Shown here: piece after piece, positions 60,357-63,300 of the stretch
How positions within the stretch are numbered: the stretch's first letter is position 1
Layout: every line of letters starts with the position of its first letter
The notes under the pieces: model-generated
The model's input: only the letters and a program-made list of their open reading frames with translations
The model's database searches: none
Told to the model about the DNA's origin: nothing
Translations under genes and position numbers: made by a program
Assembly: GCF_964355755.1 (NCBI RefSeq)
Contig: NC_092675.1
Span: forward strand, 27,134,412-27,198,411
DNA length: 64,000 bases
Source: Antedon mediterranea
Taxonomy: Eukaryota > Echinodermata > Crinoidea > Comatulida > Antedonidae
Direction: 5' to 3'

Positions 60357-63300
60357 TTAATGAGGCTCAGGTACATGTCCGTCTACATAGAAATTGCGTG
60401 TTGCCTTCGGTAGCTGCACTTCCATACCTTCAAGGTCTTTTGTAAGAATAATTTGACAACCTGTAGAAGAAATTAATAATATATTAAATTATGATGAAAA
60501 CATTTCTTCTGGTTTCGATTCGTATAATAATATAAGTAGTTCTTTGATAGTAAACCAATAAAACTTACGTTGGCAAGACAGTTTCGTCTAGCTGTCAGCT
60601 TGACTTCTTCAGTTGCTATGATGCGTTATGGCGCCGATTGGTCTCCTTTCCAGCCACTAGATGATTTTGTTGTGTAGCCTAGGGGACCAGTCGTCGTCAG
60701 AAGCTGATCGTAAATGTGAGATAGTTGGTGCGCGCCTTCGTCTCTATTCATCTTTGTATTTTTATTTTGCTTTCTTATGCTGATGCTTTCTTTAATTTTA
60801 CGTTTAAGCCAAACTTGTTCTTTGTGTAGTACCTCTATCTTATCCCAGTTAGGTATGTGGTTGTGTGTGGTCATATGGTCCGTGATTGCTGATTTATGTA
60901 AAATGGAGGACGAAACTTTCCGTGATGCACGCGTCTGCATGTTCTGTGTGTTTTCCTCAACATCTTTCTTGTGCTCTTTAATTCTGGTTTTGAGTGCCCT
61001 ACCCGTTTCCCCAATGTACACCATCTCACAGTTGGTGCACCCCACTTTGTAGACGACACCACAGGAATCCTCTTTGCATGCTTTATCTTTCGGTCGGACG
61101 ATTAAGTTTTTAATTTTGTTAGATGGTTTAAAGTATGTTCGTATGTTATATTTTTTAAATGTTCTCTTGATTTTCTCTGACAGGCCTTGAATATATGGGA
61201 TGGATATCGACCCTCTTATATCTTCTGTTTCGGGTTGTTTGTCCGTTTTTTGTTTATCTAGGTTACGTTGTACCTTTCTGTAGGGTAGTTGCATTGTTTA
61301 AGTGAAGTATGTATCATCTCAGTTTCGTTCTGTTTGTCTGCATTATTTGTGATTATCGTGTTACATCTGTGTAGAAGTGTGCGGATAACGGATAACTTGT
61401 GTTGTAGAGGATGATGTGAGTTAAAGTCCAAGTATTGATTTGTGTGGGTGGCTTTCCTAAAAACTTTAGTGTTGATGTTGCATAAGAAAGCAAAATAAAA
61501 ATACAAAGATGAATAGAGACGAAGGCGCGCACCAACTATCTCACATTTACGATCAGCTTCTGACGACGACTGGTCCCCTAGGCTACACAACAAAATCATC
61601 TAGTGGCTGGAAAGGAGACCAATCGGCGCCATAACGCATCATAGCAACTGAAGAAGTCAAGCTGACAGCTAGACGAAACTGTCTTGCCAACGTAAGTTTT
61701 ATTGGTTTACTATCAAAGAACTACTTATATTAATATATTAAATTGTATCCTTTTCACATCACCTAGCAAAACTCGTACACTAAAAAGCTCTGTCTACACT
61801 ATCAAAATAGTTTTGACAAAAAATAGTGTGATGTGCCCAAATATGGTAGTGATATGACATCATGCCCATATATGGGCACATTACATGTTTGAACTGGTTA
61901 ATATTATATTCAACTCACTTAGTCGTGATGTGTTTGTAAGAAATGGTGCTAAATCCAACATATCTTCTTCTCTGAAAATATCGAACAAGATAAAATATTT
62001 AAGATGTACTGTATCATTAAACAATGTTGTACAAAGGAGGTATTTTATACCCTATTCAGATATACATTACACTGTAATAATAATAGGCTGTGATGTTAGT
62101 CCATTGATGTATTTAAATCAACTCTTGGTCATAGCCAACAGTTTAGTTTGTAAATGTTCTTTATGTAATTTATTCGGTTATAAAGCTCTGTCTACACTAT
62201 CAAACTTTATGTGACCCATATATGGACACGATGTCATATCACTACCATACAGTACTTGGGCACATCACACTTTTTATGTCAAACTAGTTTGATGTGTAGA
62301 CAGAGCTAAATACAGAAAAACAAAGAACATGCAAAAACCAACAGGGTCAAATAAATATTTGGGAGACCTAATTGGCAATGCTTTTAAGATTCTGTGAACT
62401 ATTAATTATATAAAATTGATTAAACAGTTCAATTTGTAGTCTCGTTGAATAAGTTTTCCACTAGTTTGTTTTTTTTTTAAACTACGATTTCTTCGTTGAA
62501 AATAGTATGTATTTTCTAGGACATGTTGAAAAGTATTGAAATATAAGAAATATATTCATATATATATATATATGAAAATAAGTAGTGAAATATGATAAAT
62601 TCAAACTTACTCCTCTTCTGCTTCTGGTAATTTATCAAAATATTTATCACTTAATATTACATGACATGTACAACATGCTAGAGAAGCTTCACATGCACCT
62701 GCAAGAGAGAATGAATTACATTAACAGTTTAAACATAAATGAAATTATAAGTACAGTAATTTAATTCTAAAATTTAAAAATAATTGTTTTACCTTCTATT
62801 TCGACTCCATGTCGATGAGACAAATACATAACATTATCCCCTACTTTGCCTTGTACTGGGATGCGTTCACCATCACGATCAACATAAACAATATTTACTC
62901 TGTAAAAAAATTGTGAGTTTGGAAGGATGAAATAAATATGAGTGATATATTAAAATAAACTTGGTGACATTTTATTTTCATACTATCGGCTGTGCCAACT
63001 AGTAGGCAAGACTCTAATATTGATAAGGCCCAAATGCTTGGTTCCTATTTAGACGTAAGGCAAGTGCAATGCAAAATAAAATTGAGTTTACCAATCACAA
63101 GCAATAGTTCAGATGGTACATGCTATCATGATTGGTCAAATTATCTGTGCTGCATTTTTATGAGATACTTTAATTTAGGAAGTCATGTAAACTAAAAGTA
63201 AACCAACAAAAAGTGTTTATTCATTACATTTCATCTGGACTTTCTGGATCTTTCCATTCATAGTCTCCATGTCTCATAGGCCCTTGAAATGAAATATAGC

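What the first reader, a model, noticed from the sequence alone, without database searches (positions are those of the whole stretch)
60357..61919. Hammerhead motif and 253-bp hairpin inside the sense strand of an FDX2 intron
The Penelope-like insertion puts a hammerhead with a complete core (minus strand 60616-60573) 117 nt upstream of the last FDX2 exon, which codes for the fourth Fe-S cysteine. If it cleaved before splicing it would separate that exon from the message. The inverted arms would instead lock both motifs into a 253-bp duplex and could protect the transcript, favour circular RNA from the loop, or attract A-to-I editing. A self-cleaving RNA and its antidote hairpin in one intron is an unusual arrangement.
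Basis: partly seen in the sequence, partly recalled or inferred. Interest (0 to 1): 0.8.

Follow-up and report, generated by a model that had tools for sequence, protein, structure and literature searches.

The report
Penelope retroelement with hammerhead in intron
A recent insertion of a Penelope-like retrotransposon sits in the last intron of an animal FDX2 gene; its hammerhead ribozyme and long hairpin are standard parts of this element and are probably silent there, but the family's many copies show a strict "one end with tail, one end without" rule that says something new about how these elements insert.

Summary
The insert (61730-60491, minus strand) is a 5'-truncated Penelope-like element (GIY-YIG C-terminus) flanked by a 14-bp target-site duplication in the last FDX2 intron. 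The hairpin is its inverted terminal repeat (253 bp perfect). The hammerhead is real: a model built only from other subfamilies finds it (E 0.00027), stems I and II covary across five subfamilies, and the genome holds 247 motif matches against 15 for a reversed control. It is the minimal Penelope type, with stem III of two pairs and a 1-nt loop. Only one sense copy exists in the transcript, folding puts it in the duplex (P 0.9996), and the one such ribozyme assayed needed its element's protein. I predict no cleavage of FDX2 RNA. The ribozyme-plus-hairpin pairing is the family's default. The most interesting result came from following the family: all 29 two-sided insertions examined have the 29-nt "tail" at exactly one end (chance 2e-8), although one-sided insertions use either start. 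A second subfamily agrees (3 of 3). This suggests that each two-sided insertion pairs two different reverse-transcription start sites, one per target strand, testable in the existing in-vitro system.

The parts
60477..60490 (.). Target-site duplication, left copy (TAATATATTAAATT)
   Evidence: Exact 14-nt match to 61731-61744
61731..61744 (.). Target-site duplication, right copy; overlaps the arm end by microhomology
60494..60522 (-). 29-nt Penelope 'tail' at the 3' end of the sense arm (end of the putative element intron plus first codons of the ORF)
   Evidence: Present at one end only in 29 of 29 two-sided family copies; runs on into the ORF at internal pLTRs of L039 and L042
60523..60780 (-). 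Sense terminal repeat (3' arm), contains the hammerhead
61480..61737 (+). Inverted terminal repeat (arm antisense to FDX2)
   Evidence: perfect over 253 bp
60577..60612 (-). Hammerhead core CUGAAGA...GAAACUGUC, cleavage predicted after 60577
61648..61683 (+). Second hammerhead copy, on the plus strand, hence antisense in FDX2 RNA
   Evidence: match 61640-61691 +
60626..61297 (-). C-terminal part of the Penelope ORF with GIY-YIG endonuclease
   Evidence: Pfam PF01541, E 6.3e-4, 20.4 bits (cut-off 22.6); relatives also carry RVT_1
60509..60568 (-). Putative 60-nt element intron (GTAAGT...AAACCAG), donor 8 nt after the cleavage site
   Evidence: Donor and acceptor positions kept in other subfamilies; splicing not shown
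60461..61918 (-). Last intron of FDX2, holding the insertion
   Evidence: GTGAGT...TTCTACAG; spliced frame open
60357..60460 (-). Last FDX2 exon ([12 protein letters not shown]...HVPEPH*)
61919..61973 (-). FDX2 exon before the insertion ([18 protein letters not shown]), 5' end approximate

Best explanation
A recent, 5'-truncated, two-sided insertion of an EN-containing Penelope-like retrotransposon in the last FDX2 intron. Inferred mechanism: the element's protein cut both target strands with a stagger of about 14 bp (giving the TSD). Each free 3' end primed reverse transcription of an element RNA at an internal site, one at the tail site (60494) and one 29 nt upstream (equivalent to 60523, now at 61737). 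The two cDNAs, pointing inward, were joined head-to-head at a 2-bp microhomology (61479/61480). This makes the inverted repeat with a hammerhead in each arm. In FDX2 pre-mRNA only the left hammerhead is sense. It is a minimal motif with no workable stem III, and the antisense arm is made first and pairs with the sense arm as it emerges. So it should stay uncut and be removed with the intron. Shown here: anatomy, TSD, family, hammerhead covariation, folding predictions. Inferred: insertion steps and lack of activity in cells.
For: TSD and tail; GIY-YIG and RVT_1 in relatives; at least 118 family matches, the long ones mostly 95-100% identical; 29 of 29 two-sided copies with one tailed and one untailed end, nearly all with TSDs of 8-15 bp; microhomology of 1-5 bp at seven direct head-to-head joints; simple one-sided insertions with TSD at either start (L050 tailed, L052 untailed). 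Hammerhead. Sequestration: pairing probability with the antisense arm 0.9996, minimum 0.997, and every emerged nucleotide of the sense arm pairs with the antisense arm in growing transcripts. Literature: PMC3846280 (inverted pLTRs, tail, TSD), PMC11167929 (cutting and extension of both strands, two RT start sites bounding the tail, ribozyme needs protein), PMC6155905 (PLE hammerheads are minimal, without helix III).
Against: No RNA or biochemical data for this species. The protein requirement of the ribozyme was shown for a lizard element only. Thermodynamic folding ignores proteins and kinetics. The hammerhead fold of the isolated motif (-9.1 kcal/mol without stem III) is nearly as stable as its MFE (-9.6), so it is not excluded if the antisense arm were unavailable. 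The Pfam GIY-YIG score is just under the curated cut-off.
Confidence: 0.85

Rival explanations
1. A functional intronic hammerhead that controls FDX2 by cutting before splicing, like the domesticated hammerheads in the amniote RECK and CTCL introns.
For: Complete core and correct strand 117 nt before the last exon; intronic hammerheads are known (PMC6155905).
Against: Identical to the sequence in dozens of other family copies (93 occurrences in the partly overlapping loci read); recent insertion with perfect arms; stem III of two pairs with a 1-nt loop; single sense copy; sequestered in the duplex. No sign of constraint beyond the element.
Confidence: 0.04
2. The hairpin, not the ribozyme, affects the host: dsRNA for A-to-I editing, small RNAs, circular RNA, or mis-splicing through the element's own acceptor at 60509, which would add the residues KEMFSS and a stop and lose the fourth Fe-S cysteine.
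For: Perfect 253-bp duplex predicted in the transcript; consensus-like donor GTAAGT and acceptor AAACCAG on the sense strand.
Against: No RNA data; the donor lies inside the duplex; an intact FDX2 frame and normal splice sites remain.
Confidence: 0.2
3. Assembly artefact (palindromic chimera).
For: Perfect inverted repeats can arise in library preparation.
Against: TSD flanks the whole unit, and 28 other independent insertions have the same layout with different flanks and different junctions.
Confidence: 0.02

Closest known systems
Penelope/Poseidon EN-containing Penelope-like elements (D. virilis Penelope, A. vaga Pen2a, Anolis Poseidon PAc)
   Same: GIY-YIG and RT, head-to-head inverted pLTRs, ~30-nt tail at one end, TSD, minimal hammerhead at the pLTR-ORF junction, internal RT starts bounding the tail
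   Different: High copy number of recent two-sided copies here; tail found at exactly one end in all 29, where the literature calls it optional; hammerhead lies just upstream of a putative element intron, whereas in PAc the ORF begins at stem II
Minimal type I hammerheads of PLEs
   Same: CUGANGA/GAAAC core, stems I and II, vestigial stem III, GUC cleavage site
   Different: Stem II has an A-A mismatch; otherwise none that matters
Intronic hammerheads of amniotes (RECK, CTCL)
   Same: Hammerhead in an intron, sense strand
   Different: Those are conserved across species; this one is a recent transposon copy with no evidence of retention by selection
Animal retrozymes
   Same: Type I hammerhead in a retroelement
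   Different: Retrozymes are short non-coding tandem repeats; this element encodes RT and endonuclease

Membership tests
EN-containing Penelope-like element | GIY-YIG endonuclease domain | tested here: met
   PF01541 E 6.3e-4, below the curated bit cut-off (20.4 vs 22.6), with the motif [21 protein letters not shown]
EN-containing Penelope-like element | Reverse transcriptase domain upstream in the same ORF | tested here: met
   Absent in this truncated copy; in relative L042, RVT_1 E 1e-9 upstream of GIY-YIG; open frame 870 aa there
EN-containing Penelope-like element | pLTRs, direct or inverted, with ~30-nt tail | tested here: met
   Inverted repeats and tail here; internal direct pLTRs running into the ORF in L039 and L042
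EN-containing Penelope-like element | Target-site duplication | tested here: met
   14 bp here, 8-15 bp in relatives
EN-containing Penelope-like element | Placement in a PLE clade by RT phylogeny | not tested
   No reference PLE proteins were aligned
Hammerhead ribozyme (PLE minimal type I) | Catalytic core CUGANGA...GAA and NUH cleavage site | tested here: met
   CUGAAGA...GAAACUGUC
Hammerhead ribozyme (PLE minimal type I) | Helices I and II supported by compensatory changes | tested here: met
   10 of 13 pairs with changes on both sides; covariation 0.724 vs 0.24 shuffled
Hammerhead ribozyme (PLE minimal type I) | Self-cleavage | not testable with these tools
   Needs an in-vitro assay
Rfam hammerhead families | Match at the gathering score | tested here: not met
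   No hit, as expected for motifs without helix III
Domesticated intronic hammerhead | Conservation of the intronic ribozyme between species | not testable with these tools
   No related genome was available

The most novel reading that the evidence does not exclude
In two-sided Penelope insertions the two reverse-transcription start sites are used in an obligatory pair: one target strand always primes at the tail site and the other always at the site 29 nt upstream. This would mean an asymmetric integration complex (for example two protein subunits on one RNA stem-loop) in which the two starts cannot be the same.
Probability: 0.6. Interest if true: 0.6.

Novelty: new member of a known kind. 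Interest (0 to 1): 0.42.

Why it matters
The FDX2 hammerhead itself is an ordinary transposon part. The family is useful because it is recent, high-copy and has clean TSDs, so its ends record the insertion reaction. How Penelope elements insert is still unsettled. A strict one-tail-per-insertion rule, with microhomology joints in the middle, favours two-sided target-primed reverse transcription with paired, different start sites over self-priming on an antisense template, and it predicts a specific linked product in the purified Anolis system.

Tried and rejected
Rfam at gathering and permissive thresholds found no hammerhead, so I used motif counts with a reversed control, covariation and a custom model. 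The third model hit in the window (58355-58296) lacks the CUGA core and was taken as chance. The automatic TSD finder first gave wrong answers for L035 and L042 (simple repeats); it was re-anchored. L045, L046 and L047 share flanks and were counted once. Retrozyme or satellite origin was rejected because of the coding sequence. Single-RNA twin priming was disfavoured because both arms copy the same template region.

Full report
What is there. The last FDX2 intron runs on the minus strand from 61918 (GTGAGT) to 60461 (CTACAG). The joined exons read ...[52 protein letters not shown], and two further FDX2 exons lie at 62705-62613 and 62898-62785. Inside the intron is a 1.24-kb insert bounded by the 14-bp direct repeat TAATATATTAAATT (60477-60490 and 61731-61744). 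The insert has inverted arms (60523-60780 and 61480-61737; 253 bp perfect, 258 with one mismatch), a 699-nt middle and a 29-nt extension at one end only (60494-60522). The middle and the sense arm encode the end of a protein with a GIY-YIG motif (PF01541, E 6.3e-4, slightly below the Pfam cut-off). A long relative (L042) has a reverse transcriptase domain upstream of it (RVT_1, E 1e-9).

What it is. The genome holds at least 118 matches to the insert, the long ones mostly 95-100% identical. It is an EN-containing Penelope-like element: GIY-YIG and RT, pseudo-LTRs in inverted head-to-head order, a ~30-nt optional tail and a TSD, as described for Penelope (PMC3846280). Internal direct copies of the terminal repeat in L039 and L042 run on through the tail into an N-terminal coding region, so the '3' end' of the insert is not the end of the RNA but an internal start of reverse transcription, as shown for the Anolis element (PMC11167929).

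The hammerhead. The minus-strand motif 60612-60577 has CUGAAGA, a stem II of 7 of 8 pairs (one A-A mismatch), GAAAC, a GUC cleavage site and a 4-bp stem I. Rfam misses it. Genome-wide the pattern CUGANGA-N12-26-GAAACNGUC has 247 matches against 15 for the reversed pattern. The matches fall into at least five subfamilies with different but complementary stems: stem I GCAA/UUGC, UUU/AAG, ACU/AGU and UUCUU/AAGAA, with stem II rewritten between the main subfamilies. On 11 representatives 90.9% of cells pair, with covariation 0.724, against 0.24 in shuffles and at most 0.18 when the partner is slid. A covariance model built from three other subfamilies puts the two window copies first (E 0.00027 each). 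So the fold is real and under selection in the element. Stem III is only A-U, C-G around one nucleotide, the 'minimal' PLE form that lacks helix III (PMC6155905).

Would it cut FDX2 RNA? Probably not (inference). The right-hand copy is antisense in the transcript, so only one hammerhead is present and it cannot pair up with a second copy in cis. The Anolis PLE hammerhead showed no cleavage without its protein (PMC11167929). The antisense arm is transcribed first; in folds of growing transcripts every emerged nucleotide of the sense arm pairs with it before the hammerhead is complete, and in the whole intron the 36 core bases pair with the antisense arm with mean probability 0.9996. A more plausible hazard is the element's own acceptor at 60509, whose use would add KEMFSS and a stop; no RNA data were available.

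A rule in the family. Each two-sided insertion has two outer ends. In 26 insertions with both ends measured one ends at query 1251-1256 (with tail) and the other at 1215-1230 (without); none is tail/tail or bare/bare. Three more from other loci agree: L021 with L057, L055 and L059 (L059 has no visible TSD). If ends were paired at random the chance for 29 of 29 is 1.8e-8. Subfamily B agrees in three of three pairs (L068, L070, L077), with an 11-bp TSD visible in L070. Yet one-sided insertions with TSD exist with a tail (L050, 13 bp) and without (L052, 10 bp), so each start site can be used alone. At seven direct head-to-head joints the arms overlap by 1-5 bp, in three others they abut or lie 1 bp apart, and two have short fillers. 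The simplest account is that both target strands are cut and each primes its own cDNA, one from each of the two start sites, and the cDNAs are joined by microhomology. PMC11167929 found cutting and extension of both strands and two start sites bounding the tail, without a difference between strands; the genomic pairing adds that the two starts differ within one event. PMC3846280 says the tail is optionally present on one of the inverted pLTRs and favoured self-priming on an antisense template; I found no statement of a strict rule in the open papers searched, but subscription papers were not covered.

The hammerhead and a putative element intron. [quoted passage not shown] In family A this is a 60-nt intron, 60568-60509. 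Introns in Penelope elements are known (Arkhipova et al. 2003, cited in PMC3846280). Splicing was not tested.

Limits. Insertions with both arms matching the query were selected; very decayed or more complex copies are not in the tally.

Noticed in passing
family loci L021-L059: All 29 two-sided insertions of this Penelope family have the 29-nt tail at exactly one end; one-sided insertions can have either end type.
   Followed up: yes
60568-60509 and equivalents in other subfamilies: The hammerhead lies just upstream of a conserved donor-like site, with an AACCAG acceptor just before or at the ORF start in subfamilies A, B and C: a probable short element intron next to the ribozyme.
   Followed up: partly
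L055 1466-1589: Tiny two-sided insertion of about 124 bp (35-nt tailed arm plus about 89-nt untailed arm) with a 12-bp TSD: nearly the minimum product of the reaction.
   Followed up: partly
L068/L069 around 1501-1577: Two subfamily-B hammerheads head-to-head with about 5 nt between the cores, forming a near-perfect palindrome.
   Followed up: no
61781-61895 and 62179-62310: Two copies of a short palindromic repeat (AAAGCTCTGTCTACACTATCAAA...) next to the insertion, probably a MITE-like element.
   Followed up: no
genome: A second, very abundant Penelope family (about 55% protein identity to the query, many long open frames) is present in the same genome.
   Followed up: no
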